From an uncultured Devosia sp. (lineage in GTDB: Bacteria; Pseudomonadota; Alphaproteobacteria; Rhizobiales; Devosiaceae), in contig NZ_CAMLHM010000015.1 of assembly GCF_946479885.1 (NCBI RefSeq), positions 1 through 64,000 of the forward strand: a stretch of DNA of 64,000 bases. Reading direction: 5' to 3'. This document shows, piece by piece, positions 11,259 through 46,163 of this stretch; position 1 is the first letter of the stretch, and the number at the start of each line of letters is the position of its first letter. Below the pieces are notes generated by a model that had not been told where the DNA came from, ran no database searches, and saw only the letters and a program-made list of their open reading frames with translations. Position numbers and translations under genes: made by a program.

Positions 11259-11272
11259 TTGATCCCGGTCAA
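11259..11272. promoter_or_regulatory. FNR/FixK box upstream of hemN
   Basis: TTGATCCCGGTCAA fits TTGA-N6-TCAA. It lies between fixS and hemN, 54 bp before the hemN start, a usual activating position for class I/II Fnr or FixK promoters. Confidence 0.8.
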
Positions 11273-11284
11273 TTACGGCTCCGG

Positions 11285-11431
11285 TCAGGGCATATCGTCA
11301 TCGAGCAAGATGCGCTGCGCCGATCCTTCGATGTCTTCGTACTGGCCGGTACGGAGGGCCCAGAAGAAGCCGGCAAGCGCCAGGGCGCCAAGACCCATCG
11401 CCGAGACCACGAGAACGACCAGACCACTCAT
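11285..11431 (-). CDS. fixS: cbb3 oxidase assembly protein FixS/CcoS
   Basis: A 48-residue protein with one transmembrane helix (SGLVVLVVSAMGLGALALAGF) followed by FFWALRTGQYEDIEGSAQRIL, the FixS/CcoS signature. It is required for cofactor insertion into cbb3 oxidase. The start at 11431 lies 1 nt after the fixI stop; a longer reading from 11476 would overlap fixI. Last gene of fixGHIS. Confidence 0.92.
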   Translation of the reverse strand: MSGLVVLVVSAMGLGALALAGFFWALRTGQYEDIEGSAQRILLDDDMP

Positions 11432-11432
11432 T

Positions 11433-13598
11433 TCATGCCATCCTGGCTGGGGTCGCGAAGCGAAGGCGCAACGCATTGAGGACCACGATCATCGAAGACG
11501 AGGACATCGCCACGGCAGCGACCAATGGCGTCACCAGACCGGCAGCGGCCAGCGGCAGAACCACCAGGTTGTAGGCGATGGATATTGCAAGGTTTTGTCG
11601 AACCACGGCGTCGGTCTTTCGCGACAGCCATAGGGCAAAGGGTACCCCCGCCAGTCGGTCGTTCGTCAGCACGAAATCGGCCGCGGCACGCCCCACATCC
11701 GCCGCTGTGGCGGGAGCGAACGAGACGTCGGCGCCGCGCAGCGCGACCGCGTCGTTGATGCCGTCGCCGACCATGGCAACCGGTCCCGCCCGCCGCAAGG
11801 CGTCTATGGCGTCCAGCTTGGACTGAGGGCTCAGGCCATGCGATGCATCCGAAATCCCCAGCATTGATGCAACGCGCCGCACGCTGGCGCCGCGGTCCCC
11901 CGAAATAATGCTGGTGCCCAGGCCTGCTTTTTGCAGCGCGCGCAGCGTCGCGGCGGCATCGGCGCGCAACGGGTCCTCGAATTCGAAGCAGGCGACTATC
12001 GCGTCGTCGCGCGCCAGCCAGACGCGGCTGCGATCGCCTTCGCCATCATCTGCCGCGCCGCAGAAGCTGGCGCTGCCCAGGCGCCAGGTCCGGCCATCGA
12101 TCCTGGCTTCGACGCCGCCACCGGGCACCTCCCGGCAATCGGCGGGGACGGGCCCGTGGCTGGCTGACGCCAGCGCGACCGACAGTGGGTGATTGCTTGC
12201 CGCTGCGATGGCGCGGGCAACGGACAGGCTCTCGTCGCTGCCAAAGATCTTGCCCACATAGACCGGCCGACCCGATGTCAGGGTGCCGGTCTTGTCGAAG
12301 GCAATGTGCCGCACGGTGGCCAGGCGTTCCAGCGCCGCGCCGTCTTTCATCAGCACGCCCTGCGCAAACAGCCGGCCGGCCGCCACGACATGGGCGATGG
12401 GCACGGCCAGGGCCAATGCGCAGGGACAGGTGACGATCAGCACCGCCACGGCATTGATCAGGGCGGTGTGCCAGCCAGCGCCCTTGCCCAGCCAGAACAC
12501 GAAGGTCAGAAGGGCCGCCAGGTGAACCAGCGGCGCATAGAGATCCGCCGCCCGGTCGGCGACGCGGCGATATCGCGTACGGGTGGTTTCGGCTGCCTCC
12601 ATCAGGGAGGCGGTGCGGGCGATGAAGGATTCGACGGCCGGTCTTGCAGCAATCGCAGCGATGGGGCGGTCGACGACCAGCGCTCCGGCCGGCGCGGTTT
12701 CGCCCGGTCCGACCGCCAGCGGCATCGCTTCCCCGTTCACGAGGGACATGTCGACTGCCCCTCCTTCTCCCACAACGTCACAATCGACGGCAACACGGTC
12801 GCCGGCCCGCAGCAGCAGCCGCATGCCCGGGACGATATCGGCAGACCTGACAAAGGCGGTGGAGCCGTCCTCAAGGACCTGCTGGGCGCCGCGCGGCGCC
12901 AGGCGGGTCAGGCTGGAGACCGCCTGCCGCGCCTGGCCACGCATCACATGATCGAGGGTGCGGCCGATCAGCAGGAAAAACAGCAGCATGGTGGAGGCAT
13001 CGAAATAGGCATGCTGCCCGGCCAGCCGGGTTTCAAGCAGGCTGATCGCCGTGGTGGCTATCAGGGCGATGGCAATGGGCACGTCCATATTCGTCTTGCC
13101 AACGCGCAGGGCGGCGCGCGCGGAGCGAAAGAAGGGGCGGCCGGCAAATGCCACCGCCGGCACGGCAACCAGGGCCGACAGCCAGTAGAACAGGGTGCGG
13201 GAATCGCCCTGGACCCCAGACCACACGGCCTCGGAGAAGAACATGGTATGGGCGGAGGCAAAGCCGGCGACGACCAGGGCCGATACCAGCTCGCGGAGGG
13301 CAGGATCCTTGCCGTCCAGCTCGAGGGGATCGATCGGATGGTTACGGTAGCCGCTCCGGTTCACGGCGTCTTCGAACCGCCCCGGATCCGTGGCCGGGTC
13401 GAAGTCGATCTGGACCCGCCGGCGATCGAGGTTGACCCGTGCGGTTCTGACCCCCGGGAGCCCGGCCAGCGCCCCCTCGATCGTCTGGATGCAGGTGGCG
13501 CAATAGGCGTCCGGAACCGACAGGTTGAGCCGGCTGGCGCCGTCAGGGCCAGGCTCGATGAACTCCAGTAGCTCGGGCCCGGCGCTCACCCTGCTCAC
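11433..13598 (-). CDS. fixI: Copper-exporting P1B ATPase FixI/CcoI
   Basis: A 721-residue P-type ATPase. The N-terminal metal-binding domain has the CATC motif (YCATCIQTIEGAL), followed by transmembrane helices, the ion-path motif TCPCALALAVP, the phosphorylation site DKTGTLTSG and the hinge GDGINDAVALRGADVSF. The FixI/CcoI subgroup delivers copper across the inner membrane for the CuB site of cbb3 oxidase. It overlaps fixH by 4 nt (ATGA) and is followed by fixS after 1 nt, so translation is probably coupled. Confidence 0.95.
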   Translation of the reverse strand: MSRVSAGPELLEFIEPGPDGASRLNLSVPDAYCATCIQTIEGALAGLPGVRTARVNLDRRRVQIDFDPATDPGRFEDAVNRSGYRNHPIDPLELDGKDPALRELVSALVVAGFASAHTMFFSEAVWSGVQGDSRTLFYWLSALVAVPAVAFAGRPFFRSARAALRVGKTNMDVPIAIALIATTAISLLETRLAGQHAYFDASTMLLFFLLIGRTLDHVMRGQARQAVSSLTRLAPRGAQQVLEDGSTAFVRSADIVPGMRLLLRAGDRVAVDCDVVGEGGAVDMSLVNGEAMPLAVGPGETAPAGALVVDRPIAAIAARPAVESFIARTASLMEAAETTRTRYRRVADRAADLYAPLVHLAALLTFVFWLGKGAGWHTALINAVAVLIVTCPCALALAVPIAHVVAAGRLFAQGVLMKDGAALERLATVRHIAFDKTGTLTSGRPVYVGKIFGSDESLSVARAIAAASNHPLSVALASASHGPVPADCREVPGGGVEARIDGRTWRLGSASFCGAADDGEGDRSRVWLARDDAIVACFEFEDPLRADAAATLRALQKAGLGTSIISGDRGASVRRVASMLGISDASHGLSPQSKLDAIDALRRAGPVAMVGDGINDAVALRGADVSFAPATAADVGRAAADFVLTNDRLAGVPFALWLSRKTDAVVRQNLAISIAYNLVVLPLAAAGLVTPLVAAVAMSSSSMIVVLNALRLRFATPARMA

Positions 13599-14059
13599 CT
13601 CACCGTTATCCGGGTCTCGCGCTCAATCGCGCCCAGGGCGGTCGGAGCCGTGGTGACGGTGACGTCCCAGACCCCAGGCGCGAGATCGATGGCGCCTTCA
13701 TAACCGCCCGGGCCAAGCGACAGCGGCACCGTGGCGTCGTCGTTGCCGCCGACCGGCCGGCGCACGAAGGCCTCGACCTGCGCCAGTTCAAGTTCGCGCC
13801 CATCGGCGGCAATCTGAACGATCAACCGGCCATCCCGGTAGGTGATGTCCATCGTCCAGCCTGCCGCGTTCTGGCGGTGGGCGGCGTCCGACTTCACCTG
13901 AAACTCCTGGCTGGCGACATAGCTGTTGGCCACCACCAGGCCAGTCCAGGTGCGGGACGCCGAGACCGCCATCGCCACGTTGACCCCGATGACCACGGTG
14001 AAGAAGGCTATCGTGATCAGCAGCATATGCCCGCCAGTGAACTCCCTGGTTCTGGCCAT
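13595..14059 (-). CDS. fixH: cbb3 oxidase assembly protein FixH/CcoH
   Basis: A 154-residue protein with one N-terminal transmembrane helix (about 12-34) and a periplasmic beta-rich FixH domain containing NSYVASQEFQ and the conserved GxW region near WTMDITYRDGRL. It stabilises the cbb3 assembly intermediate. ATG at 14059 has GGAGGA 6 nt upstream; ATG at 14065, which overlaps the fixG stop, lies too close to that site. It overlaps fixI by 4 nt. Confidence 0.92.
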   Translation of the reverse strand: MARTREFTGGHMLLITIAFFTVVIGVNVAMAVSASRTWTGLVVANSYVASQEFQVKSDAAHRQNAAGWTMDITYRDGRLIVQIAADGRELELAQVEAFVRRPVGGNDDATVPLSLGPGGYEGAIDLAPGVWDVTVTTAPTALGAIERETRITVR

Positions 14060-14061
14060 GG

Positions 14062-15627
14062 TCATTCCTCCTGTTCCGGGCCCTCGAAGCGGACGGCCGT
14101 GGACGCGCTCATGGCGCCGTCCTGACTGGTGACGACCATGGTGAAATCCGACTGGGACGGAAGGTTCTGGTCGGGCGAACGCACATAGAGGCGGAGCGGC
14201 AGAACCAGGTCAGGTTCAACGCTCACATGCAGCTCGCTCGCCCCGCCGTCGGACAGTCCGGGTCCGGCCAGCGTCGCGCCCTCCAGACCCTCGATCGACA
14301 GCACCAGCTCGCGCGGCTGCTGCGTCATGTTCAGTATCTTGATGTCGTAGCCATTCTGGATCGAGCCGTCGGCCAGCATGACGAAAAGCGGATTGCGGTC
14401 GTGCAGCACGTTGAGCCCGATCGACGGGCGCAAGGACAGGGCCACCAGCATGGCCATGCCGATGGCCGACCAACCCAGGAAATAGACGAGCGTTCTCGGA
14501 CGCAGAACCGAGCGCCAGTTGGTGTGCCTGACGCCATCGACAAAGCGACCCACGGCATCGCGGACCCGCTCGGGACGGATGATATCATCGGTGCCCCGGC
14601 CGATCTGCATGTTGGTGCTGTAGTCGTTCAGGGTCGCGTAGGAGATCAGGCCACGCTCGCGGCCCAGCTTGTCCATGACCGCGTCGCAGGCGTCGATGCA
14701 CAGTGCACAGGTGATGCATTCGAGCTGCTGGCCATCGCGAATGTCTATGCCCATCGGGCATACGACGACACAGGCCTTGCAATCCACGCAATCCCCGACC
14801 GGCTTTCCGCCCGAAGCCTCTCGCTTTGCGGGCTTGCCGCGGGGCTCGCCGCGCCAGTCGTTGTAGGTGACTGTCAGGGAATGCTCGTCGAGCATCGCGC
14901 CCTGAATGCGGGGCCAGGGGCACATATAGGTGCAGACCTGCTCGCGCATCAGGCCGCCGAAGGTGTAGGTCGTGGCTGTCAGGATCGCGATGGTGAAATA
15001 GGCAACGGCCGGTGCGCGGAAACTGAAGATGTCCCCTGCCAGCGTTGGCGCGTCGGCGAAGTAGAATATCCAGGCGCCTCCGGTGGCCACACCGATCAGC
15101 AGCCATATGCCGTGCTTGAGGACGCGCTTTGCCACCTTTTCCGCTGACCAGGGCGCAGCGTCGAGCTTGATGCGCGCATTGCGGTCGCCCTCGACGAACT
15201 GCTCCACCCCGATGAAAAGGTCCACCCAGACCGTCTGCGGACAGGCATAGCCGCACCAGGCCCGGCCGACGGTGGAGGTGATGAGGAACAGGCCCACCCC
15301 GGCCATCACCAGCAGGCCGGCGACATAGTAGAATTCGTGCGGCCAGATCTCGATGAACAGGAAGTAGAAGCGCCGGTTGTTGAGGTCGAGCAGCACGGCC
15401 TGATCGGGGGCATAGGGACCGCGGTCCCAGCGGAGCCAGGGCGTCAGGTAATAGATCGACAGGGTGAGGGCCATGACGATCCACTTGAAGGTTCGAAACC
15501 GACCTTGCACGCGCTTGGGAAATATCTTGCGACGGGCCGCATAGAGGGGCTGCCGCCGCGAGGACGAGTTGACCGCCTCCACGTCGTCATGGGATTCAGG
15601 GAGTCTCGTATTGTCGATGATGATCAT
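14062..15627 (-). CDS. fixG: Membrane ferredoxin-like protein FixG/CcoG
   Basis: A 521-residue protein with about five transmembrane segments, the CGYACPQTVWVDLF motif and a double 4Fe-4S ferredoxin segment (CVDCKACVVVCPMGID, then CITCALCIDACD). The C-terminus is an Ig-like periplasmic domain. CcoG reduces copper before its incorporation into cbb3 oxidase. First gene of fixGHIS, with an FNR/FixK box 51 bp upstream. The ribosome site is weak. Confidence 0.94.
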   Translation of the reverse strand: MIIIDNTRLPESHDDVEAVNSSSRRQPLYAARRKIFPKRVQGRFRTFKWIVMALTLSIYYLTPWLRWDRGPYAPDQAVLLDLNNRRFYFLFIEIWPHEFYYVAGLLVMAGVGLFLITSTVGRAWCGYACPQTVWVDLFIGVEQFVEGDRNARIKLDAAPWSAEKVAKRVLKHGIWLLIGVATGGAWIFYFADAPTLAGDIFSFRAPAVAYFTIAILTATTYTFGGLMREQVCTYMCPWPRIQGAMLDEHSLTVTYNDWRGEPRGKPAKREASGGKPVGDCVDCKACVVVCPMGIDIRDGQQLECITCALCIDACDAVMDKLGRERGLISYATLNDYSTNMQIGRGTDDIIRPERVRDAVGRFVDGVRHTNWRSVLRPRTLVYFLGWSAIGMAMLVALSLRPSIGLNVLHDRNPLFVMLADGSIQNGYDIKILNMTQQPRELVLSIEGLEGATLAGPGLSDGGASELHVSVEPDLVLPLRLYVRSPDQNLPSQSDFTMVVTSQDGAMSASTAVRFEGPEQEE

Positions 15628-15677: not shown

Positions 15678-15691
15678 TTGATCTGCGTCAA
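15678..15691. promoter_or_regulatory. FNR/FixK box upstream of fixGHIS
   Basis: TTGATCTGCGTCAA fits TTGA-N6-TCAA and lies 51 bp before the fixG start, giving the assembly genes a promoter independent of ccoNOQP. Confidence 0.82.
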
Positions 15692-15768: not shown

Positions 15769-16662
15769 CTATTGGCCGCCGCCAAGACCGTGCACATAGA
15801 TTGCCAGTTCCTTGATGGTGGCGTCGTCGAGCTTCTCGGACCAGGCCTGCATCATGCCGTGCCGCGGGCGGTCGATCTGGGCCGTGATGGCCTGGAGTGA
15901 GCCGTCATAGAGCCAGATCTTGTCCGTCAGGTCGGGGCCGCCGACATCGGGCATGCCGATGCCACGATCGCCGTGGCATCCGGCGCAGTTGTCTGCGAAC
16001 AGTTGCTCGCCCTCCGGCGTGGCCGCCGCGCCATCGACACCGGACAGGCTGGCGACGTAGGTGGCGATCTGGTTGATCGCGCCGCTGTCGAGCATGCCGT
16101 CCACGCCGAAATTGGGCATGAGGTTGTAGCGGGTGTCCGGATCGGTGGGCGACCTGACGCCATGGGCGATGGTCGAGTAGATTTCGTCGACCGTGCCGCC
16201 CCAGATCCAGGCGTCGTCATTGAGGTTGGGATAGCCGGGACCGCCTGCGGCGCCCGTTCCGTGGCACTGCGAACAGTTGACCCCGAACGCGGATGCTCCG
16301 GCGGAGGTGGCAAAACGTGCCAGTTCCGGATCGATCAGAATATCCCCGAGCGGCGCCTCCGCGATGCGCGCCACGATTGCGCCGTTGGCCTCGTCCACAG
16401 CCGCCATTGTCTGCTCGAGCTCGGCGCGGCTGGAATAGCCGAGCAGGCCCGAAGTCGCGGATGAAACGAGCGGCCAGGCCGGATACATGACGGTGTAGCC
16501 GATGGCCCAGACGATGCAGGCATAGAACGTCCACAGCCACCATCGCGGCAGCGGGTTGTTCAGCTCCTTGATGCCGTCCCACTCGTGGCCGGTGGTTTCC
16601 ACGCCACTGAGGTGATCGACATCCTTGTCCTGCTTGCCGCCGGTATTGTCGTGCCCGCTCAT
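15769..16662 (-). CDS. ccoP: cbb3 oxidase di-haem subunit CcoP
   Basis: A 297-residue subunit: a cytoplasmic N-terminus, one membrane helix (about 42-65, WWLWTFYACIVWAIGYTVMYP), then two cytochrome c domains with CSQCH and CAGCH motifs and methionine ligand regions NLMPNFG and GIGMPDVGG. It passes electrons from cytochrome c to CcoO. The start at 16662 overlaps the ccoQ stop (ATGA). Confidence 0.95.
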   Translation of the reverse strand: MSGHDNTGGKQDKDVDHLSGVETTGHEWDGIKELNNPLPRWWLWTFYACIVWAIGYTVMYPAWPLVSSATSGLLGYSSRAELEQTMAAVDEANGAIVARIAEAPLGDILIDPELARFATSAGASAFGVNCSQCHGTGAAGGPGYPNLNDDAWIWGGTVDEIYSTIAHGVRSPTDPDTRYNLMPNFGVDGMLDSGAINQIATYVASLSGVDGAAATPEGEQLFADNCAGCHGDRGIGMPDVGGPDLTDKIWLYDGSLQAITAQIDRPRHGMMQAWSEKLDDATIKELAIYVHGLGGGQ

Positions 16663-16826
16663 CGTGGTGCGTTCCCTTCGTCGTTCTTGAGAGGAATGAG
16701 TGCCGCGTCCTGCGCCCGGGCCCCGGCGCCCGGTCGCAGCATGAAGGCGCCAACGGCCAGAAAGACCGCGAACAGGTAGACCAGACCCCAGGAGTCGGCG
16801 AAGTGGCGGAGGGTGTCGTAATGCAT
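16659..16826 (-). CDS. ccoQ: cbb3 oxidase small subunit CcoQ
   Basis: A 55-residue protein with one transmembrane helix (WGLVYLFAVFLAVGAFMLRP), sitting between ccoO and ccoP. Size, topology and place are those of CcoQ, which stabilises the CcoNO-CcoP interaction. It overlaps ccoP by 4 nt. Confidence 0.9.
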   Translation of the reverse strand: MHYDTLRHFADSWGLVYLFAVFLAVGAFMLRPGAGARAQDAALIPLKNDEGNAPR

Positions 16827-16837
16827 GGTGCCCCCTC

Positions 16838-17569
16838 CTACCGCGCGTTCGCCGCAGGGTCGTAGGTGTCGAAATCCACCAGGGTGCCGAGCATCTGGAG
16901 ATACGCCACAAGGGCGTCCATTTCCGTGATGCGCATGCGGTTCCCGTCGAAATCGCCGATGACCGCCTTGGGGTAGTGCTCCAGGACATCGCTGGTGTCG
17001 GCGTCCGGCGTCGCCTGTGCGATCAGGTCGGCCGCCGCAGCGTCAATCATCTCGGGTGTGTAGGGCACACCAACCGTGGCATTGGCCTGCAGCATCCCGC
17101 CGATCGTGTCATAGTCCAGCGTGGCATTGGCCAGGAACGAATAGCTCGGCATGATCGACTCGGGCACCACGGACCTTGGGTCCATGAGATGCTGAACCTG
17201 CCACTCGTTGGAATACCGACCACCGACGCGGGCCAGGTCAGGCCCGGTGCGCTTGGAACCCCATTGGAACGGGTGGTCGTACATGGACTCGGCGGCCAGC
17301 GAATAATGGCCGTAGCGCTCCACTTCGTCGCGGAAGGGCCGGATCATCTGGCTGTGGCAGACGTAGCAGCCTTCCCGGACATAGATGTCGCGACCGGCCA
17401 GCTCCAGCGGCGAGTAGGGGCGCATGCCCTCCACCTTTTCGATGGTGTTCTGGAAGTAGAACAGGGGCGTGATTTCGACGATGCCACCGATGCAGACCAC
17501 CACCAGCGAGCCCACCAGCAGAAGGGAAGCGTTTCGCTCGATGACGCCGTGTTTGTCGAGAATGGACAA
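16838..17569 (-). CDS. ccoO: cbb3 oxidase mono-haem subunit CcoO
   Basis: A 243-residue protein anchored by one N-terminal helix, with a single haem c motif CYVCH near residue 69 ([15 protein letters not shown]) and a methionine-containing axial region near ESIMPSY. It is located 12 nt after ccoN and carries electrons from CcoP to the haem b of CcoN. Confidence 0.95.
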
Positions 17570-17581
17570 GGTGAGGGCTCC

Positions 17582-19183
17582 TTACTCGGCGGGTTGAAGC
17601 TGGGGAGAGACGGGCATTGGCGCTTCGGTGCGAACCTTGCCGGCGATCGTCATGGCGATGTTGAACGCCATGATCAGGGCACCGATCAGGTATAGAAGCC
17701 CGCCGAGAGCACGCATGATGTAGTAGGGATGAAGCGCCGCTACGGTCTCTGCGAAGGAATAGACCAGGAAGCCTTCGCTATCGTATTCGCGCCACATGAG
17801 CCCCTGCATCACGCCGGAAACCCACATCACGGCGGCGTAGACCACGATGCCGAGGGTCGCCAGCCAGAAGTGCCAGTTGACCATGCGGAGCGAGTAGAGG
17901 CGTTCACGCCCCCACAGCTTGGGAACCATGAAGTAGACCGCGCCAAAGCTGATCATGCCGACCCAGCCGAGGGCGCCGGAATGGACGTGGCCGATTGTCC
18001 AGTCGGTGTAGTGGCTGAGCCCGTTCACCGACTTGATGGACATGACGGGACCTTCGAAGGTCGACATTCCATAGAAGGCGATGGCGATGACCATCATGCG
18101 AATGATGGGGTCGGTGCGCATCTTGTCCCAGGCGCCGCGAAGGGTGAGCAGGCCGTTGATCATGCCGCCCCAGCTGGGCATCCACAGCACCACCGAGAAC
18201 ACCATGCCCAGCGTCTGCGCCCAATCGGGCAGAGCGGTGTAGTGCAGGTGATGCGGGCCGGCCCAGATATAGAGGAAGATGAGGGCCCAGAAGTGGATGA
18301 TCGAGAGGCGGTATGAATAGACCGGCCGCTCGGCCTGCTTGGGCAGATAATAGTACATCATGCCCAGGAAACCTGCCGTCAGGAAGAAGCCGACGGCATT
18401 GTGGCCGTACCACCACTGCGTCAGCGCATCCTGGACACCCGAGAACAGGGAATAGCTGCGCGCGCCGAACGGGGAGACGGGCACGGCCAGATTGTTGACG
18501 ACGTGCAGCAGCGCAACGGTGACGATGAAGGCCAGGTAGAACCAGTTCGCCACATAGATGTGGGGCTCCTTGCGTCTGAGGAGGGTGCCAAGGAACACAA
18601 CCAGGTAGGCGACCCACACGACGGTCAGCCAGATGTCGACATACCATTCCGGCTCGGCATATTCGCGGCTCTGGGTGATGCCCAGGAGATAGCCGGTGGC
18701 CGCCATCAGGATGAAGAGCTGGTAGCCCCAGAAGACGAACCAGGCCAGGTCCCCGCCGAAAAGGCGGGCACGCGTGGTGCGCTGCACGACATAGAAGCTC
18801 GTGGTCATCAAGGCGGTGCCGCCAAAGGCGAAGACCACCGCGCTCGTATGCAGCGGCCGCATGCGCCCGAAGTTGAACCAGGGCCCGAAATTGAGTTCCG
18901 GGAAAGCGAGTTGGGTGGCGATCACCACGCCGACCAGGAAGCCGACCACGCCCCAGAACACGGTGAGAATGCTCCCCAGCCGAACCGGACCATCCATATA
19001 GCTCGAGACGGGCTCGGCGACCGCCGGTTGTGGCAGCCGCATGGCGACAATTGTCGCCAGGCCCAGAACCAGGCTGAGGACGCCCATATGGACGCGGAAG
19101 GGATCGTCAACCGCCAGCCCGGAAAGAGCCACTGCCACGAGCGTGCCCGCGGCCAACCCAATGATCCAACCCGTATATCTCAC
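17582..19183 (-). CDS. ccoN: cbb3 oxidase catalytic subunit CcoN
   Basis: A 533-residue, about 12-helix haem-copper oxidase subunit I. Visible ligand segments are the CuB/tyrosine region [20 protein letters not shown], the CuB histidine pair in [12 protein letters not shown], and the haem ligands in [10 protein letters not shown]. It reduces O2 to water with high affinity at the inner membrane. The start is placed at GTG 19183, with AAGGGGG 4-5 nt upstream. A longer reading from ATG 19273 would begin inside the FNR box and gives a non-hydrophobic extension absent from the family. Confidence 0.95.
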
Positions 19184-19259: not shown

Positions 19260-19273
19260 TTGACTTTTGTCAA
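19260..19273. promoter_or_regulatory. FNR/FixK box, divergent ccoN / hemerythrin-like gene
   Basis: TTGACTTTTGTCAA is a perfect TTGAC-N4-GTCAA palindrome, 77 bp from the ccoN GTG start and 63 bp from the plus-strand gene at 19336. It can serve both directions. Confidence 0.85.
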
Positions 19274-19335
19274 TGTGAAGCGCTCAGACGCGAATAAGTC
19301 TGGGCCCGTTGCCCCTGATGGGAGGAGACGCGAAA

Positions 19336-19788
19336 ATGCTGGACTCTCTGAACGGCTCTGCCCTCCGCGAGATCGTCGTCGGCCACCGGGAACAGATCGG
19401 CTTGTGCAAGACGCTCGAGCTGATCGCCGATGCCTTGCCCGACAATATCGATCCGGCTTTGTGCAAGGCGGCAGCGGGCAGCATTCACCGGGTGATGACC
19501 AAGGTCGTCCAGGTGGAGCAGGAAGCGCTGACCGACGATCTGGCCCGGCGCGGTCCGGCCCGCGTCCTCGACCTCACCGCCACAATCGACCGGCTGCTGC
19601 GCGAGAATGCCGAAGACCTCTGCTATGCCGAAGAGCTGCAGGAGACCCTGAGGGAGCTGGGGAACGGCCGCCGCACCGTGTCGGCCGACGCGATCGGCTA
19701 CATGCTGCGCGGATTCTTCGAATCCCGCCGACGCCGCATTGCGCTCGAGCGCGAGATCCTGGCTGCGCTGGTCTCCTCGCCGCCATGA
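19336..19788 (+). CDS. Degenerate hemerythrin-like protein
   Basis: A 150-residue all-helical protein. The framework [13 protein letters not shown], then [16 protein letters not shown], then [13 protein letters not shown] matches bacterial hemerythrin-HHE proteins. Most iron-ligand positions appear substituted: H17 is kept, but the expected HHxxE in helix 2 reads VVQVEQ (about 57-62), the helix-3 histidine is N91 (D94 kept), and the helix-4 histidine is R133/R134 (E138 kept). It probably cannot bind a di-iron centre. The start at 19336 has GGGAGGAG 8-9 nt upstream. It is divergent from ccoN under a shared FNR box and overlaps the next gene by 4 nt. Function unknown. Confidence 0.65.
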
Positions 19789-20477
19789 TCCCATCGCCAC
19801 TCGTTTGGGGCCTGCTTCTGGGACTGGGCTCGAGCCTGCATTGCGCGGGCATGTGCGGACCATTGGGATGTTCGCTGCTGCTGCTGGGCGGGCCCGACCG
19901 GTCCCGGGCGACGCTGCTGGGTCGGCTGGCCGCCATGCAGCTGGGCAGGGTCATGTCCTATCTCGGTCTTGGCCTGGCATTCGGCACATTCGGGGCCGGC
20001 CTGCAGGCCGGGTTCGATACCACGGCGGTGCATCTGGGCTTTCAGTGGGCGGCCGGTGGCGCAATCGTCTGGCTCGGGCTGGCGACGGCCGGCGTCATTC
20101 CCTCGCTGGCCATGGCCGACCATCTTGCAGCCCCGGTCGCGCGCGGCCTTGCCGGGGTGCGAGGCAAGCTGTCCGGTGGTGGCCCCGAGATTGCCCTGCT
20201 GGCCGGCATTGTCTGGGGCATTACGCCATGCGCGATGGTCTACACGGCTCTCTTCAACTCGCTGCTCACCGGAAACGCCGCCGACGGCATGCTGCTCATG
20301 CTCGCTTTCGGTCTGGGGACCGTGCCCGCCGTGGTGCTCTCAACGCTCGCCCTGGTGGGCGCTCGCTCGATGGCGCGGCGGCCCGGGCGCAAGGTCGCAG
20401 GCGCTTTGATGGTCGGCGCCGGCGCCATCGCTCTGCTGTTCACCGTTCCGGGCAGCCCCCTCTGCATCTCGGCCTGA
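19785..20477 (+). CDS. TauE/SafE (UreH-like) family membrane protein
   Basis: A 230-residue protein with about six membrane helices and the cysteine-rich opening SSLHCAGMCGPLGCSLLLL plus GITPCAMVYTALF, typical of the DsbD_2/UreH-like transmembrane family often found with cbb3 oxidase genes. The cysteines near the membrane entry suggest a role in metal (copper) or thiol transfer for oxidase assembly; this is inference from family context. The start overlaps the previous stop (ATGA). Confidence 0.82.
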   Translation: MIPSPLVWGLLLGLGSSLHCAGMCGPLGCSLLLLGGPDRSRATLLGRLAAMQLGRVMSYLGLGLAFGTFGAGLQAGFDTTAVHLGFQWAAGGAIVWLGLATAGVIPSLAMADHLAAPVARGLAGVRGKLSGGGPEIALLAGIVWGITPCAMVYTALFNSLLTGNAADGMLLMLAFGLGTVPAVVLSTLALVGARSMARRPGRKVAGALMVGAGAIALLFTVPGSPLCISA

Positions 20478-20560
20478 CGCCCGGACTGGGCCCTTGTTTG
20501 CCCTCTGACAAAGACGATCGAGGATCGGCGCTTCATCTTGCCCACGGGGAGGAGATGAAG

Positions 20561-20794
20561 ATGCGCCACCAACCTGCAGCACTGGACGATTTGAGCGTCA
20601 AGGAGATCATGGATCGATGGCCGGAAACGGCGTCGGCATTCATCGCGCGCCGCATGCATTGCGTGGGCTGTCCGATCGGTCCGTTTCACACCCTGACGGA
20701 CGCCGCCGGCGAACATCGGCTCGATGCGGCGGCCTTCGCAGTGGAGGTCGAAACCAGGATCAAAGCAAGCCAGGGGCCAGGCCGTCGCCGATGA
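20561..20794 (+). CDS. DUF1858-domain protein
   Basis: A 77-residue protein matching DUF1858: VKEIMDRWPETASAFIARRMHCVGCP, with a CxxC pair then IGPFHTLTDAA. The domain occurs in ScdA/YtfE and anaerobic redox proteins. GGGGAGGAG places the start at 20561 rather than the ATG 6 nt earlier. Its 3' end overlaps the convergent NnrR-like gene by 35 nt. It probably belongs to the hemerythrin-like/TauE unit. The biochemical role is unknown. Confidence 0.82.
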   Translation: MRHQPAALDDLSVKEIMDRWPETASAFIARRMHCVGCPIGPFHTLTDAAGEHRLDAAAFAVEVETRIKASQGPGRRR

Positions 20795-21470
20795 GCAGGA
20801 TGCGGTGGGGGTTCTTCAGCAGCAGTTTCTGCCGGCCCCCTTCCACCAGCCCGGCCGCCTCCCATGCGCTCAATATCCGCGAGACCGTGTGCAGGGTCGT
20901 TCCCGACAACTCGGCGATATCCTGCTTGCTCACGGGGAAGTCGATACGCACGCCAGCGGCCTCCTTGCGGCCGGATTGATTGCCCAGCCTGAGAACGGTG
21001 TGGGCCACGCGCCGCTCTACTTCCTCGGTCGCCATTTCGCGCAGTCTCGAATGCGCCTCCTGCAGCCGATCGCCCATCGTCTGCATGGCCTCCACCGCCA
21101 TTGAGGGATAGGCCGCCATGAAGGATGACCATCGCGCGGTCGGCCAGGACAGAACCACGCTCTCCGACAACGCCGTGGCGGTGCCGGGATAGTCGGTACG
21201 CTGCAGAGCCTTGGCTATCCCGAACAGATCGCCGGGCGTCACGATGCGCACGATGACCTGCTGGCCCTCGGCGGTAACCTGGGTCACCCTCAGCCGCCCG
21301 GACACAAGCACGAAGAACGACAGCGCGTCCTCGCCTTGCTCGAACACCGTCTCACCGGCCGCCACCTGCCGGTGCGACGAGGCGGAGAGCACGTCGTCAA
21401 ACTGCGTGTCCGACAGGGTGGAGAATATTTCGAAGGACCGGATCGTGTTCCGATCGACGCCACTGCTCAT
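20760..21470 (-). CDS. Crp/Fnr regulator, NnrR-like
   Basis: A 236-residue Crp/Fnr protein: a cyclic-nucleotide-fold sensor (about 15-135), a long dimerisation helix and an HTH reading [26 protein letters not shown]. There is no cysteine cluster, so it is not an FNR oxygen sensor. The TTLHTVSR helix, with histidine where FNR has glutamate, resembles my recollection of NO-responsive NnrR proteins. The denitrification genes nearby and the NnrR-like TTGCG-N4-CGCAA site at 42332 fit that role. The start at 21470 has GGAG 6-7 nt upstream; longer readings overlap fixL. An alternative is another DNR-type branch. Confidence 0.7.
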
Positions 21471-23666: not shown

Positions 23667-23680
23667 TTGATCTAGCTCAA
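23667..23680. promoter_or_regulatory. FNR/FixK box upstream of the FixT-like gene
   Basis: TTGATCTAGCTCAA (TTGA-N6-TCAA) lies 15 bp after fixJ and 75 bp before the next start. It suggests that the small receiver gene is expressed under FixK or FnrL control rather than only by read-through from fixLJ. Confidence 0.8.
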
Positions 23681-24105: not shown

Positions 24106-24118
24106 AGTCCCTAAGAGG
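24098..24118 (+). promoter_or_regulatory. Candidate FixJ-binding repeats upstream of fixK
   Basis: CTAAGTAG (24098-24105) and CTAAGAGG (24111-24118) are direct repeats 13 bp apart. The first matches the FixJ K-box GTAMGTAG at 7 of 8 positions. They lie 67-87 bp before fixK, consistent with phospho-FixJ activation. The first overlaps the stop codon of the FixT-like gene. Confidence 0.5.
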
Positions 24119-27503: not shown

Positions 27504-27517
27504 TTGACGCGGGTCAA
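27504..27517. promoter_or_regulatory. FNR/FixK box, divergent ycnI / nnrS
   Basis: TTGACGCGGGTCAA is a perfect TTGAC-N4-GTCAA palindrome between ycnI-copCD and nnrS. A weaker second site, TTGACCCAGCGCAA (27539-27552), lies nearer nnrS; its right half CGCAA resembles NnrR half-sites. Confidence 0.82.
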
Positions 27518-30970: not shown

Positions 30971-30984
30971 TTGAGCTAGAGCAA
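30971..30984. promoter_or_regulatory. FNR-like box, divergent ubiDX / ubiTUV
   Basis: TTGAGCTAGAGCAA has a canonical left half TTGA and a GCAA right half; it lies inside the longer palindrome CTTTG-N8-CAAAG. It is 34 bp from ubiD and 56 bp from ubiT and may control both arms of anaerobic quinone synthesis. Confidence 0.62.
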
Positions 30985-35285: not shown

Positions 35286-35299
35286 TTGATCCATGGCAA
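35286..35299. promoter_or_regulatory. FNR-like box upstream of small membrane protein/USP unit
   Basis: TTGATCCATGGCAA: canonical TTGAT left half and a GCAA right half, as at the ubi promoter. 72 bp upstream of the start at 35214. Confidence 0.55.
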
Positions 35300-36088: not shown

Positions 36089-36550
36089 CTATGGAGCGCT
36101 TGCCGACACCGCCGGCTGCCGCGCCAGCCATTGCTGCATCTCGGCAATCTCGGTCCGCTGGGCGGAAATGATCTCCTGCGCGACCATCTTCACCCACGGA
36201 TCGCTGCCGTGATCCAAGGCGACCTGCGCCATCGCCACCGCCCCCTGGTGGTGGGGCAGCATGCTGCAGACGAAAGCGACATCGAAGTCTGGCGCCGTCA
36301 TGCCGCGCATCATGTCGGAAAGCATCGGCTCCATCGTCTGTAGCAGCGCCCCGTGGGGCTGGTCGACCATCGCCGCCATCATGTCGATATGCGCCTGAGT
36401 GGAGCCCGCCTCGTGGTCGCTCGCGACATCTCCGCAGATCGGCGGCATAGGCATTGTGGCGACGGCCATGGGCTGCTGGTCACGGACGAACAGCGATCCG
36501 GCGAAGGCCGCGAGCAGCACTGCGCCCGCGCCGTATTTCAGAAGGTCCAT
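36089..36550 (-). CDS. DUF305 exported protein
   Basis: A 153-residue protein with an N-terminal membrane/signal segment and the DUF305 ferritin-like repeats: HIDMMAAMVD, then FVCSMLPHHQGAVAMAQVAL with the paired histidines. Members are often linked to copper or metal handling in the periplasm. It is divergent from the 396-residue membrane protein across a shared FNR box. Confidence 0.88.
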   Translation of the reverse strand: MDLLKYGAGAVLLAAFAGSLFVRDQQPMAVATMPMPPICGDVASDHEAGSTQAHIDMMAAMVDQPHGALLQTMEPMLSDMMRGMTAPDFDVAFVCSMLPHHQGAVAMAQVALDHGSDPWVKMVAQEIISAQRTEIAEMQQWLARQPAVSASAP

Positions 36551-36599: not shown

Positions 36600-36613
36600 T
36601 TGACGTAGATCAA
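36600..36613. promoter_or_regulatory. FNR/FixK box, divergent DUF305 / 36682 gene
   Basis: TTGACGTAGATCAA (TTGA-N6-TCAA), 50 bp from the DUF305 start and 69 bp from the plus-strand start. Confidence 0.82.
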
Positions 36614-36681
36614 CAATGGTCGTCCGTTGGGGTGTATTTCGTAGGCAACTGCGGAACCGCAGATTTTTCAGGAGCTTATTG

Positions 36682-37872
36682 ATGACCACGTTTTTGCAGG
36701 ACACCAAAAGGGTGCCGATTGCCCGAAATTGGCTGCCCAAGGTCCAGCGCATCGGCGGCGCGGCCGCCTTGTTCTCCATCCTGGGTGGTCTCTCGGCCGC
36801 GACCCCTGCCAGCGCCCATGTGAAGTGGTTTGCGCCCTATGTCGTGGGCAATGCGCCCGCGCCCATCACACGGACGCTCACCAACGGCTGGTTCTGGCTC
36901 GGTATCATCCTGGTATTGGCGTTCTTTGCCGTCACCGTGATCATCGAGCGCTTGCCGTTGGGCGTTCAGACCAATGCGGGGCTGGACCGGTTGGGCGCAC
37001 CGCTGTGGAACAGGTCCGACGATTTCATGCGGGCCGTGATCGGCGCGTTCTTCGTGGCGATCTTCGCCGTCGGCGGTGTCTATCTGACGCCGGACCTGCA
37101 GACGCCAAACGAATGGGTATCGTGGCTGCAGCTGCTCATCGCCGCCCTGGTCTTTTCGCGCCGCACCATGCCCCTGGCGGCTGCCGGCATTATCGGGCTC
37201 TGGGTCATCGCGTTGCGCGACTATGACTTCTTCCACCTGCTCGACTACCTGGCCCTCGGTGTCGGTGTGGCCGGCTACCTGGTGCTGGCCTCCAACCCAG
37301 ACGCCGGTTGGTACAAGCACCGTTTCGCCGTGCTGCGGTGGGGCGTTGCCATTGCGCTGATGTGGTCGAGCCTGGAGAAATTCGCCTATGCCGAGTGGTT
37401 CTACCCGCTCGTGGAGGAGCGGCCGTTCCTGACCTTCGGCATGCCGCGGGACACCTTCATCCCGATGGCCGGTGTGGCCGAGTTCACCATGGGCTTCGGC
37501 CTGCTGTGGACGCCGCTGATCCGCCGGCTATCGGCGCTCGCGCTCATCATCATCTTCACCACGGCGGTCTATCCATTCGGCCGCATCGACCTGGTCGGTC
37601 ATGCGCTCATCATGGGCACGCTGTTCCTGATTGCCGCCGATCCGTCGCCGTCGGGCCTGAAGCTGCCCAAACTGGCACCTGCCCTGGGCAGCGTGCCCGC
37701 CGGCCTGCTGGCTGCGCTGGTGATCATTGCCGGGGCCTATTGGGGCCTGCACGGCGTGTTCTATGCCGGTGCCGTGCCCACGACACCCGGGCAGAGCAGC
37801 GGTGAACTGCTGACGCACCTGCCCAATGCGGAACATCCACACGATGCTGCCCCGGCGCCGACGGCGCAGTAG
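36682..37872 (+). CDS. Polytopic DoxX-like membrane protein
   Basis: A 396-residue protein with an N-terminal signal-like segment ending near ATPASAHVKWFAPY, then about ten hydrophobic segments. The C-terminal half (FAVLRWGVAIALMWSSLEKFAYAEWF, then FIPMAGVAEFTMGFGLLW) resembles DoxX-type proteins. CAGGAG lies 7 nt before ATG 36682. The mature start AHVKWF and several other histidines recall copper-site proteins. The FNR box and nearness to nirK suggest a role in nitrite respiration or NO defence, but the function is unknown. Confidence 0.72.
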   Translation: MTTFLQDTKRVPIARNWLPKVQRIGGAAALFSILGGLSAATPASAHVKWFAPYVVGNAPAPITRTLTNGWFWLGIILVLAFFAVTVIIERLPLGVQTNAGLDRLGAPLWNRSDDFMRAVIGAFFVAIFAVGGVYLTPDLQTPNEWVSWLQLLIAALVFSRRTMPLAAAGIIGLWVIALRDYDFFHLLDYLALGVGVAGYLVLASNPDAGWYKHRFAVLRWGVAIALMWSSLEKFAYAEWFYPLVEERPFLTFGMPRDTFIPMAGVAEFTMGFGLLWTPLIRRLSALALIIIFTTAVYPFGRIDLVGHALIMGTLFLIAADPSPSGLKLPKLAPALGSVPAGLLAALVIIAGAYWGLHGVFYAGAVPTTPGQSSGELLTHLPNAEHPHDAAPAPTAQ

Positions 37873-39762: not shown

Positions 39763-40911
39763 TCAGGCGATCGGGCTAGGAGCCTGTACCTGCGTCATGA
39801 GGTCGTCGTTCCACTCGCCTTCCACTTTGAAGTGCGCAGTGGCCCCCAGTTCGACGGCCTCGATGAGGTTGTGGTTGACATAGGCATAGATGCCCGGCTG
39901 CAGGAACGTGTAGAGCGCGGCACCGGCGCAGCCGCCGGGGATATGCCAGGTCTCGAGGTCGACCTGCGGCGGGTTGCGGAACTTGCCGGTATTCCAGACG
40001 TAATCGCCGTGGCCGCCGATCAGATGCGGACGGGTGTCGCGATTGGCCTGGCTGTGGATGATCAGCACCGTCTCGCCGACATTGGCGGTCATGGCGTTCT
40101 CGCCCGTCAGGGCACCAGCGGCGCCGTTGAACACCTCGTGGGTCGGCGTAAGGGTCTTCATGACCTCGAGCATGTCCGAGTAGCCGTCGCCGGCCGATTC
40201 ATAGGTCTTGAAGTTGCCGTCGGCATCCTTGGGCACGTAGAAGTCCTGTTCGCCGATATAGTAGATGCGATCGTAGGTCAGCTTGTTGCCCTGGCCGTCC
40301 TTCAGGCCGTCGCGCGGCAGGACCATGATGGCCCCGTTCATACCCGACACCACATGCCACGGGATCATCGGACCCCCGGGCGCGCAGTGGTAGACGAACA
40401 CGCCCTGGCGGGTTGCCTTGAAGCGGAGCTTCACCTGCTCACCGGGGTTGATCAGCGTAAGACCGCCGCCGCCCAGCGCACCGGTAGCCGAGTGGAAGTC
40501 GATATTGTGCTGCATCATGTTGGTGTCGGGATTGGTCAGCGTCAGCTCGACATAGTCGCCCTCGTGGACCACCATCAACGGGCCCGGAACCGAACCGTTG
40601 AAGGTCATGGCCTGCACCGTTGTACCCAGGTCGTCGATGACCAGTGCCTTCTCCTGAATCTCCAGGGTGAACTCGACCACCTTGGGGCCGCTGCTGGCGA
40701 CCTGCTCGTGGTCGTGCACTCCGGGAGGGGCAACCAGGTCCACCTTCACGCGCGGCAGGGCGCTCAGATCGGGTGCAGGCCCGGTCACTACACCGGTTTC
40801 TTCGGCGCCCGCCGGAACCGACGCGAGGACGGCGCCGAAAACGCCTGCGAACGCGACGCCGGCCATCAGGTTGCGGCGTCCTAGGTTGATGTCGTCGTCA
40901 TGGTCTTGCAT
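39763..40911 (-). CDS. nirK: Copper nitrite reductase NirK
   Basis: A 382-residue protein with a Tat-type signal ([16 protein letters not shown]). Type 1 copper ligands are H135, C176, H186 and M191 ([17 protein letters not shown]); type 2 ligands are H140, H175 and H347, with catalytic D138 in QHNIDFH. The [11 protein letters not shown] spacing, one residue longer than in Alcaligenes, is the rhizobial type. It reduces nitrite to NO in the periplasm, with pseudoazurin (divergent gene) as probable donor. An FNR box lies 75 bp upstream. Confidence 0.97.
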
Positions 40912-40986: not shown

Positions 40987-41000
40987 TTGACGCGGCTCAA
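40987..41000. promoter_or_regulatory. FNR/FixK/NnrR-type box upstream of nirK
   Basis: TTGACGCGGCTCAA (TTGA-N6-TCAA), 75 bp before the nirK start. Confidence 0.82.
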
Positions 41001-41047
41001 ATTGTGCCAACGATTAATTTGGGCCTGCCTGCGACATTTCGGCTAAT

Positions 41048-41061
41048 TTGACACGCGTCAA
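41048..41061. promoter_or_regulatory. FNR/FixK-type box upstream of pseudoazurin
   Basis: TTGACACGCGTCAA, a perfect TTGAC-N4-GTCAA palindrome 77 bp before the pseudoazurin start. It is 61 bp from the nirK box, with both boxes at almost the same distance from their genes. Confidence 0.85.
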
Positions 41062-41138: not shown

Positions 41139-41579
41139 ATGAACACGCTCTTCAAAGCAACCATCGCCACGCTGATGCTCGTCACTGCTGCGCCCACCTA
41201 TGCAGCCAACTTCGAAGTGCAGATGCTCAACAAGGGCGCCGACGGCGCCGGGATGGTCTTCGAGCCCGCGCTGACCCAGATCGCGGTCGGCGACACGGTG
41301 ACCTTCATACCCACCGACAAGGGGCACAATGCCGAAACGGTCAAGGATATCCTTCCCGACGGGGCCGAGGCCTTCAAGGGCGCCATGGGCAAGGAAGTTG
41401 TCGTCACGTTCACCGCGCCGGGTGTCTATGCCGTGAAGTGCGCGCCCCATCTGGGCATGGGCATGATCGCCGCCATCATTGTGGGCGATGCGGTCAATAT
41501 CGACGCCGCCAAGGCCGCGCACTTGCCGGGCAAGGCAAAGGAACGCTTCGACGCAGCACTTGCCGGCGCCGGCCTCTAG
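41139..41579 (+). CDS. paz: Pseudoazurin
   Basis: A 146-residue cupredoxin. A signal peptide (about 1-22, ...APTYA) precedes the domain with copper ligands H63, C101, H104 and M109 (KGHN, then [10 protein letters not shown]). It is a periplasmic electron carrier, the usual donor to NirK, and may also accept electrons from the amine dehydrogenase further on. Divergent from nirK with symmetric FNR boxes. Confidence 0.95.
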
Positions 41580-42331: not shown

Positions 42332-42345
42332 TTGCGCTGTCGCAA
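42332..42345 (+). promoter_or_regulatory. NnrR-type box
   Basis: TTGCGCTGTCGCAA fits TTGCG-N4-CRCAA, the motif proposed for NnrR in Rhodobacter denitrification promoters. It is a perfect palindrome except in the centre, 52 bp before the DUF59 gene. It differs from the TTGA boxes elsewhere, suggesting NO rather than oxygen control. Confidence 0.6.
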
Positions 42346-42977: not shown

Positions 42978-42979
42978 CC

Positions 42980-45458: not shown

Positions 45459-45507
45459 GGGCTGCTCCAGATTCGCGCCAGATCAGCACGCGGCCCGGGC
45501 TCCATCG

Positions 45508-45521
45508 TTGATCAAGCGCAA
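45508..45521. promoter_or_regulatory. FNR/NnrR-like box upstream of the 233-residue membrane protein
   Basis: TTGATCAAGCGCAA: TTGAT left half and CGCAA right half, intermediate between FNR and NnrR motifs. 50 bp before the minus-strand start at 45458. Confidence 0.6.
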
Positions 45522-45589
45522 ATTGAGCCAGGAACAGGGGGATATTTCGCCAAGGTCCGTTGGGGATCACCAGACCGTTTGCCGGATCC

Positions 45590-46096
45590 TCAACCCGCCG
45601 TTTCTGCCGCGCCCCGCACCAGGACAAGGACGCGATAGGTTCCGTCCTGCCATCGGCCGAAGCAGAGGTGATTGTCGTCGAGAAGCCGGAAAGGCAGGTC
45701 CGTGGGCTCCTCGCGCAGGAGGGCGAAGAGCACCTGCTTGTCCAACATGCCGTCGAGCGCTTCAAGGACTGCATCAGTGGCTGACCTGGTAGGCGTGGCG
45801 CTGAGGTCGACGAGCACGGCGGGTTTCGGCCAGGTGAGCGGGTTCCTGGCATCCACTGATGCTTCCGGTTGGGGCCGGCGCGTGAAAAGCACCTGCCAAT
45901 TGCCATCCTCGCCGGAACTGGCCCGGTGATCGAAGCCCTTGCTGTCGAGCAAGCGCAGCAACGGTTCGGGCTTGAACGGAGCAGTCAGCAGCAGCGGCTC
46001 GCCGGGCCGCAGCGCCTCGACGGCCGCCATGATGCTGGCGAACGGCTCGCCCTTCGCCCGGGAAATGTCGCTTACGTCCAGGGTCTTCGGTTCCAT
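45590..46096 (-). CDS. DUF2249 protein (tandem-like)
   Basis: A 168-residue protein with two DUF2249-like halves: LDVSDISRAKGEPFASIMAAVEALRPGEPLLLTAPFKPEPLLRLLDSKGF (read in parts) and, from about residue 90, VLVDLSATPTRSATDAVLEALDGMLDKQVLFALLREEPTDLPFRLLDD. AAGGGAG lies 5-6 nt before ATG 46096. An FNR box is 54 bp upstream. Function unknown, recurrently linked to denitrification genes. Confidence 0.82.
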   Translation of the reverse strand: MEPKTLDVSDISRAKGEPFASIMAAVEALRPGEPLLLTAPFKPEPLLRLLDSKGFDHRASSGEDGNWQVLFTRRPQPEASVDARNPLTWPKPAVLVDLSATPTRSATDAVLEALDGMLDKQVLFALLREEPTDLPFRLLDDNHLCFGRWQDGTYRVLVLVRGAAETAG

Positions 46097-46149
46097 TGCA
46101 GCTCCCTTCGGAAGTCGTTCAGCGATGCCCGTCCTCACTGCCCTCCGCA

Positions 46150-46163
46150 TTGACGCAGCTCAA
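46150..46163. promoter_or_regulatory. FNR/FixK box upstream of DUF2249 gene
   Basis: TTGACGCAGCTCAA (TTGA-N6-TCAA), 54 bp before the start at 46096; nearly the same sequence as the nirK box. It is the last box before the amine dehydrogenase operon. Confidence 0.82.

What the first reader, a model, noticed from the sequence alone, without database searches (positions are those of the whole stretch)
11259..46163. Twelve FNR/FixK-type palindromes define one regulon across 35 kb
Sites at 11259, 15678, 19260, 23667, 27504, 30971, 35286, 36600, 40987, 41048, 45508 and 46150 fit TTGA-N6-TCAA (nine) or TTGA-N6-GCAA (three). All lie in intergenic regions, usually 34-77 bp from a start. They join cbb3 oxidase, haem, quinone, copper and nitrite genes with several unknown genes, giving the latter a testable physiological context.
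Basis: partly seen in the sequence, partly recalled or inferred. Interest (0 to 1): 0.75.

Follow-up and report, generated by a model that had tools for sequence, protein, structure and literature searches.

The report
Low-oxygen gene switches in Devosia
A Devosia-like bacterium carries a tight cluster of low-oxygen and nitric-oxide gene switches of a well-known kind; comparison with relatives suggests that they belong to at least two overlapping control systems and that one of their targets is a poorly understood membrane protein.

Summary
All twelve palindromes exist exactly as stated. The TCAA form is far above chance (9 found, 0.48 expected). All 14 TTGA-N6-(T/G)CAA matches of the 64 kb lie between genes (intergenic 8.9%). 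A -10-like element sits 20-22 bp after the sites in the gene direction only, so they look like class II FNR/FixK sites centred near -41.5. Orthologous sites recur in Devosia relatives.

"One regulon" is too simple. FnrL and FixK have an ETVSR recognition helix; the NnrR-like regulator has HTVSR (30 of 30 relatives examined). Across Devosia, close ccoN orthologues and the 396-aa gene use only TTGA half-sites (66 of 66), nnrS mostly TTGC/TTGT (51 of 54). This is the known FixLJ-FixK/FnrL/NnrR network.

Least expected: the 396-aa membrane protein gene at 36682 keeps its site in 20 of 20 full-length close homologues. In 14 of them an nsrR-like gene follows and an NsrR-type box abuts the FNR site. 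The window copy has no such neighbour and no box at that place, only a weak match 16 bp further.

The parts
8846..8859 (-).
9119..9862 (+). FnrL-like regulator, ETVSR helix, four Cys (CxxCx7C plus one)
   Evidence: NCBIfam FnrL 201.6 bits, below curated cut-off 300
9859..11205 (-). hemN
   Evidence: above cut-off
11259..11272 (.). A/A site, hemN promoter
   Evidence: TTGATCCCCGTCAA at the same place in G030
11433..15627 (-). ccoI, ccoH, ccoG
15678..15691 (.). A/A site, ccoG promoter
   Evidence: identical 14-mer in G030, TTGATCTAGCTCAA in G001
15769..19183 (-). ccoN, ccoO, ccoP of cbb3 oxidase (ccoQ not checked)
19260..19273 (.). A/A site, ccoN and perhaps divergent hemerythrin promoter
   Evidence: 13 of 13 close ccoN orthologues have an A/A site
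19309..20794 (+). hemerythrin, TauE/SafE-like membrane protein, DUF1858-like protein (last two named by eye)
20760..21440 (-). NnrR-like CRP/FNR regulator, HTVSR helix
21555..23652 (+). fixL, fixJ
   Evidence: FixJ above cut-off; FixL 500.9 bits, below cut-off 850
23667..23680 (.). A/A site upstream of fixT-like gene
   Evidence: identical 14-mer in G030; absent with fixT in G001
23755..24105 (+). fixT-like receiver-domain protein, feedback inhibitor candidate
   Evidence: (26.1 bits, far below cut-off 150)
24099..24114 (+). FixJ-type box TAAGTAGAGTCCCTAA, overlaps the fixT stop codon
   Evidence: 12 of 16 positions match the S. meliloti fixK site quoted in PMC4999443, counted by eye
24185..24808 (+). 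fixK, ETVSR helix
   Evidence: (168.9 bits, below cut-off 300)
27504..27517 (.). A/A site, DUF1775-copCD promoter
27608..28831 (+). nnrS
30971..30984 (.). mixed site between divergent ubiDX and ubiTUV
   Evidence: -10-like elements in both directions
35286..35299 (.). mixed site near the Usp/70-aa/RhtB genes, target unclear
36600..36613 (.). A/A site between copM and the 396-aa gene
36631..36649 (+). weak NsrR-type match (3 mismatches), not at the place where relatives have it
   Evidence: 21 of 2000 shuffles as good
36682..37872 (+). 396-aa membrane protein, some homologues match MauE or are named DoxX; conserved target
36089..36550 (-). CopM-family metallochaperone
   Evidence: 91.2 bits, cut-off 90
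39763..40911 (-). nirK
40987..41000 (.). A/A site, nirK promoter
41048..41061 (.). A/A site, pseudoazurin promoter
41139..41579 (+). pseudoazurin
42332..42345 (.). TTGCGACAGCGCAA, NnrR-type C/C site upstream of SufT-like/DUF2249/353-aa genes
   Evidence: TTGCGCCACGTCAA at the same place in G009
45508..45521 (.). mixed site, 233-aa membrane gene 44757-45458
46150..46163 (.). A/A site, DUF2249 gene 45590-46096
   Evidence: little conserved

Best explanation
The region is a micro-oxic/denitrification island of a Devosia-like alphaproteobacterium. Its palindromes are, in the main, working class II activator sites for FNR-type dimers centred near -41.5. Proposed circuit: low O2 activates FixL; FixJ-P binds the box at 24099 and switches on fixK. 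FixK and the Fe-S regulator FnrL bind TTGA half-sites and activate hemN, ccoG, ccoNOP, fixT, copCD, the 396-aa gene beside copM, nirK and pseudoazurin. FixT feeds back on FixL. The NnrR-like regulator, probably NO-sensing, reads TTGC/TTGT half-sites; mixed sites (nnrS, ubiD/ubiT and others) may be read by either class. Shown here: sites, spacing, conservation, recognition-helix difference, half-site split. Inferred: binding, signal sensing, direction of control, feedback.
For: Motif excess and 14 of 14 intergenic. TATAAT matches peak at offset 22 (2.59) and 20 (2.53) after the site in the gene direction for 17 site-gene pairs; 0.82 and 1.36 for 11 opposite-direction controls; 0 of 3000 shuffles reach the peak. 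A peak at offset 20 also in relatives for ccoN and nnrS, and, less sharply, for the 396-aa gene. Conserved sites at hemN, ccoG, ccoN, fixT, nirK/paz and ubiD/ubiT in one or more of three relatives. ETVSR/ETVSR/HTVSR helices (HTVSR in 30 of 30 loci examined). Half-sites: close ccoN orthologues 26 of 26 A, 396-aa gene 40 of 40 A, nnrS 2 of 54 A. FixJ-type box once in the window and once each in G030 and G001, upstream of fixK. Published FNR/FixK/NnrR motifs agree.
Against: No binding or expression data for this organism. GCAA-form count alone is near chance (4 of 100 shuffles). FnrL, FixL, FixK and FixT names rest on best hits below NCBIfam cut-offs. nirK sites in the window are A/A although nirK is often NO-controlled; in relatives nirK-side sites are A/A, A/C or A/T. 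A second, more distant ccoN (17 of 30 loci, left out of the half-site count) has mixed and TTGT-type sites as well as A/A ones, so ccoN as a family does not obey the split. The FixJ-type box is absent by exact match from 8 of 10 genomes searched, including G009, which has fixLJ. The related genomes are not independent, so the half-site contrast is not a true probability. In B. diazoefficiens data the contrast of A/A against all other sites is not significant (p 0.098), although A/A against no-A sites is (p 0.008).
Confidence: 0.85

Rival explanations
1. One single regulon: FnrL, FixK and NnrR read all sites interchangeably, so the base differences mean nothing.
For: FNR, FixK and DNR motifs are reported virtually identical (PMC2908626); the B. 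diazoefficiens authors argue that the FixK2 box may also serve NnrR (PMC6710368). The second ccoN has mixed sites.
Against: Half-site split in Devosia; HTVSR helix; separate published NnrR consensus TTGcg-N4-cgCAA (PMC1274295); stronger NnrR dependence at no-A sites (median 12.3-fold against 4.1-fold).
Confidence: 0.15
2. Only part of the sites work; those at 35286, 45508, 46150 and 8846 are chance or decayed.
For: GCAA count near chance; DUF2249 site seen in few homologues (5 of 30); weak -10 match for DUF2249 and the 70-aa gene.
Against: All are intergenic, with centres 30-61 bp from a start.
Confidence: 0.4
3. Chance excess caused by base composition.
For: None found beyond the weak GCAA count.
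Against: 0 of 100 shuffles reach 9; reversed pattern 1.8- to 10-fold rarer in 9 of 9 relatives; conservation and spacing.
Confidence: 0.01

Closest known systems
FixLJ-FixK2-NnrR cascade of Bradyrhizobium diazoefficiens (PMC6710368: passages, and part 1 of 2 of section 15 with Table 1)
   Same: FixK box TTG(A/C)-N6-(T/G)CAA; hemN, ccoN, nirK, nnrR, a sterol-binding/U32 peptidase unit (UbiT/UbiU-like by my reading) and DUF1858 in Table 1; nnrS and nnrR driven from one divergent box
   Different: Here an fnrL-like and a fixT-like gene lie in the same cluster; I saw no copM or DoxX/MauE-like product in Table 1
Core FNR/FixK/DNR regulons of alphaproteobacteria (PMC2908626: sections 8 and 10, and passages)
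   Same: cytochrome oxidase, hemN, metal ATPase, UspA, NnrS, U32 peptidase; a site listed in its section on experimental tests, between the lipid-carrier (UbiT-like) and ubiD units of R. sphaeroides, matches the divergent site at 30971 in position
   Different: The 396-aa gene was not among the passages I saw; the tables were not read whole
NnrR and NsrR regulons (PMC1274295: passages)
   Same: NnrR consensus TTGcg-N4-cgCAA; NsrR consensus gATGyAT-N5-ATrCATc; an FNR-like site with an NsrR box downstream at enterobacterial hcp
   Different: Here the composite promoter drives a MauE/DoxX-like membrane protein and an nsrR-like gene, in relatives, not in the window
FixT feedback of Caulobacter and S. 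meliloti (PMC7078487: passages)
   Same: Small receiver protein tied to the FixLJ system
   Different: FixT-like here has one Cys, a weak family score, and an FNR/FixK-type site of its own

Membership tests
FNR/FixK-type class II promoter sites | TTG(A/C)-N6-(T/G)CAA palindrome upstream of target genes | tested here: met
FNR/FixK-type class II promoter sites | Site centre near -41.5 relative to transcription start | tested here: inconclusive
   Fixed -10-like spacing fits; transcription starts not mapped
FNR/FixK-type class II promoter sites | Regulator binds and activates | not testable with these tools
   needs footprinting or reporters
FnrL | NCBIfam NF045989 cut-off | tested here: not met
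   201.6 bits against 300; best family all the same
FnrL | Cys set for an Fe-S cluster and ETVSR helix | tested here: met
   that these Cys hold the cluster is recalled
FixK | NCBIfam NF050806 cut-off | tested here: not met
   168.9 bits against 300
FixJ | NCBIfam NF006900 cut-off | tested here: met
   304.2 against 255
FixL | NCBIfam NF041777 cut-off | tested here: not met
   500.9 against 850
FixT | NCBIfam NF051882 cut-off | tested here: not met
   26.1 against 150; kept as FixT-like
NnrR | HTH differs from FNR at the Glu position | tested here: met
   HTVSR; criterion from PMC2908626
NnrR | NO response | not testable with these tools
   needs expression data
NsrR (gene next to the 396-aa gene in relatives) | NCBIfam NF008240 cut-off 182 bits | tested here: not met
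   0 of 75 genomes over it; the adjacent genes score about 97-122 bits
NsrR (gene next to the 396-aa gene in relatives) | Three cluster-type Cys | tested here: met
   C-x5-C-x5-C in 14 of 14 adjacent genes; that these are the cluster ligands is recalled
MauE/DoxX-like membrane protein (396-aa gene) | Pfam match | tested here: inconclusive
   0 families for the window protein; MauE in 3 of 25 homologues
GGCX-like membrane fold (396-aa gene) | Structural match to solved GGCX | tested here: inconclusive

The most novel reading that the evidence does not exclude
The 396-aa membrane protein is a new, quinone- or copper-linked component of the low-oxygen/NO response. In Devosia it is typically an operon with an nsrR-like repressor, driven by a composite promoter in which an FNR/FixK site abuts an NsrR box, so that it fires only when O2 is low and NO is present. 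In the window lineage the neighbouring repressor gene is absent and the box is absent from its usual place (at most a weak, displaced match remains), and the gene lies beside nirK under FNR/FixK control, so that the NO check is missing or taken over by NnrR.
Probability: 0.35. Interest if true: 0.55.

Novelty: new member of a known kind. Interest (0 to 1): 0.4.

Why it matters
The island itself is a known kind of network, so the main value is a good case for pulling apart overlapping CRP/FNR regulons: one base of the half-site and one residue of the recognition helix seem to separate O2-type from NO-type control in one genus. It also ties a widespread membrane protein family, mostly recorded as hypothetical, and a CopM chaperone to low-oxygen and NO signals, which makes their function testable.

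Tried and rejected
Splitting the window sites by the fifth base (TTGAT against TTGAC) as micro-oxic against N-oxide genes, weighed by eye on the site lists: the sites read in both directions and relatives break the split; dropped in favour of the fourth base.

NsrR-type boxes in the window: 7 matches with up to 3 mismatches in 64 kb, one of them at 36631 in the 396-aa gene's promoter but 16 bp beyond the usual place, where the window has 9 mismatches; 21 of 2000 shuffles of that promoter do as well. The match at 49782 (one mismatch) is inside the MauB-like gene and judged chance.

Foldseek against PDB for the 396-aa model gave no match with E below 0.001; the GGCX-like rows by VIA-align are suggestive only. 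A search for papers with DoxX, copper, cbb3 and CopM and one with NsrR, DoxX and nitric oxide (8 of 299 listed) showed no title on this pair; I opened none of those papers.

tRNA and Rfam scans were empty. For the 233-aa protein 14 relatives were found among the 7,999 candidates scored, too few for a footprint. The pairs 70-aa gene and RhtB at 35286 were in the first -10 test (19 pairs: 3 and 4 of 6 matches) and dropped because the target is unclear.

Of 27 loci of the 396-aa gene, one gave no tblastn match; of the other 26, 20 have the site. The six without are three relatives at 64-67% identity, one partial match at 33%, and two loci that hold pieces of one broken copy in G004. The limit of 3 mismatches for the NsrR-type box was set; four of the 15 boxes (G026, G035, G039, G004) are near-identical sequences.

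In one search only the site nearest the start was counted, within set distances, and ccoN loci under 80% identity (17 of 30) were left out.
Full report
1. The observation. Pattern scans find all twelve sites at the coordinates given. The TCAA form is greatly in excess (9 against 0.48; 0 of 100 shuffles). The GCAA form is not clearly so by count (5 against 1.32; 4 of 100 shuffles reach 5). All 14 TTGA-N6-(T/G)CAA matches in the 64 kb are intergenic with my gene calls, while 8.9% of the window is intergenic. A TTGC-N6-GCAA site at 42332, upstream of the SufT-like/DUF2249/353-aa genes, also fits the published FixK2 consensus; two further TTGC-N6-GCAA matches (45939, 51866) are inside genes.

2. 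Genome-wide density. The window's genome is not held. Nine related genomes hold 36-81 TCAA-form sites each, the reversed pattern 5-29. In G030, the closest relative found (nnrS 81%), 6 of 32 sites lie in the 17 kb fix-cco-nir cluster. The window has 9 in 35 kb.

3. What the genes are. In order: BON-domain gene, fnrL-like, hemN, ccoIHG, ccoPON, hemerythrin with a TauE/SafE-like and a DUF1858-like gene (the last two named by eye), an NnrR-like regulator, fixL, fixJ, fixT-like, fixK, ccmE, copCD, DUF1775, nnrS, ubiXD, ubiTUV, Usp, RhtB-like, copM, the 396-aa gene, DUF6544, a gene with weak PvdO/EgtB-type matches here called nirV from recall, nirK, pseudoazurin, nnrU, SufT-like, DUF2249, 353-aa gene, pdxH, 233-aa gene, DUF2249, then a methylamine dehydrogenase cluster. 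Several regulator names rest on best hits below curated cut-offs; see the membership table. The organism is judged Devosia-like from its closest nnrS matches.

4. Promoter anatomy. For 17 site-gene pairs in the gene direction, TATAAT matches peak at offsets 22 (2.59) and 20 (2.53) after the 14-mer; in 11 opposite-direction controls these offsets give 0.82 and 1.36; 0 of 3000 shuffles reach the observed peak. In relatives the best offset is 20 for ccoN (13 distinct sequences), nnrS (26) and the 396-aa gene (20); for the last the peak is not sharp (2.85 at 20 but 2.80 at 16), because the stretch after its site is itself conserved. This places the site centres near -40 to -41.5, as for class II FNR promoters. 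-10-like matches stand on both sides of the ubiD/ubiT site and of the ccoN/hemerythrin site; at 36600 the 396-aa side has the better one (4 of 6 against 2 of 6 for copM).

5. Conservation. In G030 sites stand at hemN, ccoG, ccoN, fixT and nirK/paz, not at nnrS; in G001 at ccoG, ccoN, nnrS, ubiD/ubiT and nirK/paz; in G009 at hemN, ccoG, ccoN, fixT, ubiD/ubiT and nirK/paz, not at nnrS, with a different gene order. Only the fetched stretches were read. The fixT 14-mer is identical in the window and G030. G001 lacks both fixT and that site between fixJ and fixK, but keeps a FixJ-type box upstream of fixK. That box, TAAGTAGAGTCCCTAA, matches 12 of 16 positions of the S. meliloti fixK site quoted in PMC4999443 (passage). 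It occurs once in the window, once each in G030 and G001, and in 0 of 8 other genomes searched.

6. Not one regulon. The recognition helices read ETVSR in FnrL and FixK and HTVSR in the NnrR-like protein (HTVSR in 30 of 30 loci of relatives). PMC2908626 (section 8 read) reports that NnrR proteins differ at this position and that their motif keeps 6 of the 10 conserved positions; PMC1274295 (passages) gives the NnrR consensus ctTTGcgnnnncgCAAag. Against a simple split, the 17 loci of a more distant ccoN, left out of that count, show A/A, A/C, A/T, C/T and T/T sites. The genomes are related, so the Fisher value is not a real probability. In the window nine sites are A/A, five are mixed A/C (8846, 27539, 30971, 35286, 45508) and 42332 is C/C. 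As an outside check I re-used Table 1 of PMC6710368 (42 motifs): NnrR dependence is stronger at sites without an A half (n 10, median 12.3-fold) than at A/A sites (n 18, 4.1-fold; p 0.008), but A/A against all others is not significant (p 0.098).

7. The unknown gene at 36682. It was found in 23 of 75 genomes at E below 0.001, two of these very weak. All 20 full-length homologues of 74% identity or more keep a TTGA-N6-TCAA site 43-79 bp upstream, often far from the denitrification genes (about 285 kb away in G030, another contig in G001), though in G014 and G066 within about 15 kb of nnrS. A random 350-bp stretch of fetched loci holds a site of the wider pattern in 8%. copM lies divergently upstream in 17 of the 20. 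In 15 of 20 a box with at most three mismatches to the NsrR consensus gATGyAT-N5-ATrCATc starts one base after the FNR site, and an nsrR-like gene with three cysteines follows in 14 of these 15 and in 0 of the other 5 (limit set, and some loci are near-identical). G030 and G001 have neither. In the window a DUF6544 gene on the other strand follows, the usual place of the box has 9 mismatches, and a weak match (3 mismatches) lies at 36631. The nsrR-like genes stay below the NCBIfam cut-off. The protein has a signal-like N-terminus followed by a conserved HVKWFAPYVVG stretch and several invariant His; 3 of 25 homologues match MauE; the model (pLDDT 77) best resembles the membrane part of GGCX, a quinone-binding enzyme, at a Z that helical bundles can reach by chance.

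8. Weak members. DUF2249 at 45590: 5 of 30 homologues (36-59% identity) have any such motif within about 300 bp. The 233-aa gene: 14 relatives found. The Usp gene could not be tested.

9. Verdict. It is the known FixLJ-FixK/FnrL/NnrR network in a new organism, with at least two site classes rather than one regulon. The copM/396-aa pair is the part worth following.

Noticed in passing
window 46445-50277: Methylamine dehydrogenase (mau) cluster directly beyond the last site; no TTGA-N6-(T/G)CAA site among its genes.
   Followed up: no
window 23755-24114: FixT-like gene whose last codons and stop overlap the FixJ-type box of fixK; gene and its own site are missing together in G001.
   Followed up: partly
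window 40987-41061: nirK and pseudoazurin have two sites about 60 bp apart; 9 of 10 nirK loci of relatives keep two sites 47-63 bp apart, and in 7 of these 9 the nirK-side one is A/C or A/T.
   Followed up: partly
L145-L163, L168: FNR/FixK site, NsrR-type box, 396-aa gene and nsrR-like gene in 14 of 20 loci.
   Followed up: yes
G004 C1:11782-12689 (L170, L171): A second, broken copy of the 396-aa gene near an intact one.
   Followed up: no
relatives, second ccoN (about 60% identity), e.g. L217, L220, L231: Two sites upstream, the distal one of TTGTCG type.
   Followed up: no
window 4863-8429: Sigma-54 activator with GAF domain divergent from an aldehyde dehydrogenase gene.
   Followed up: no
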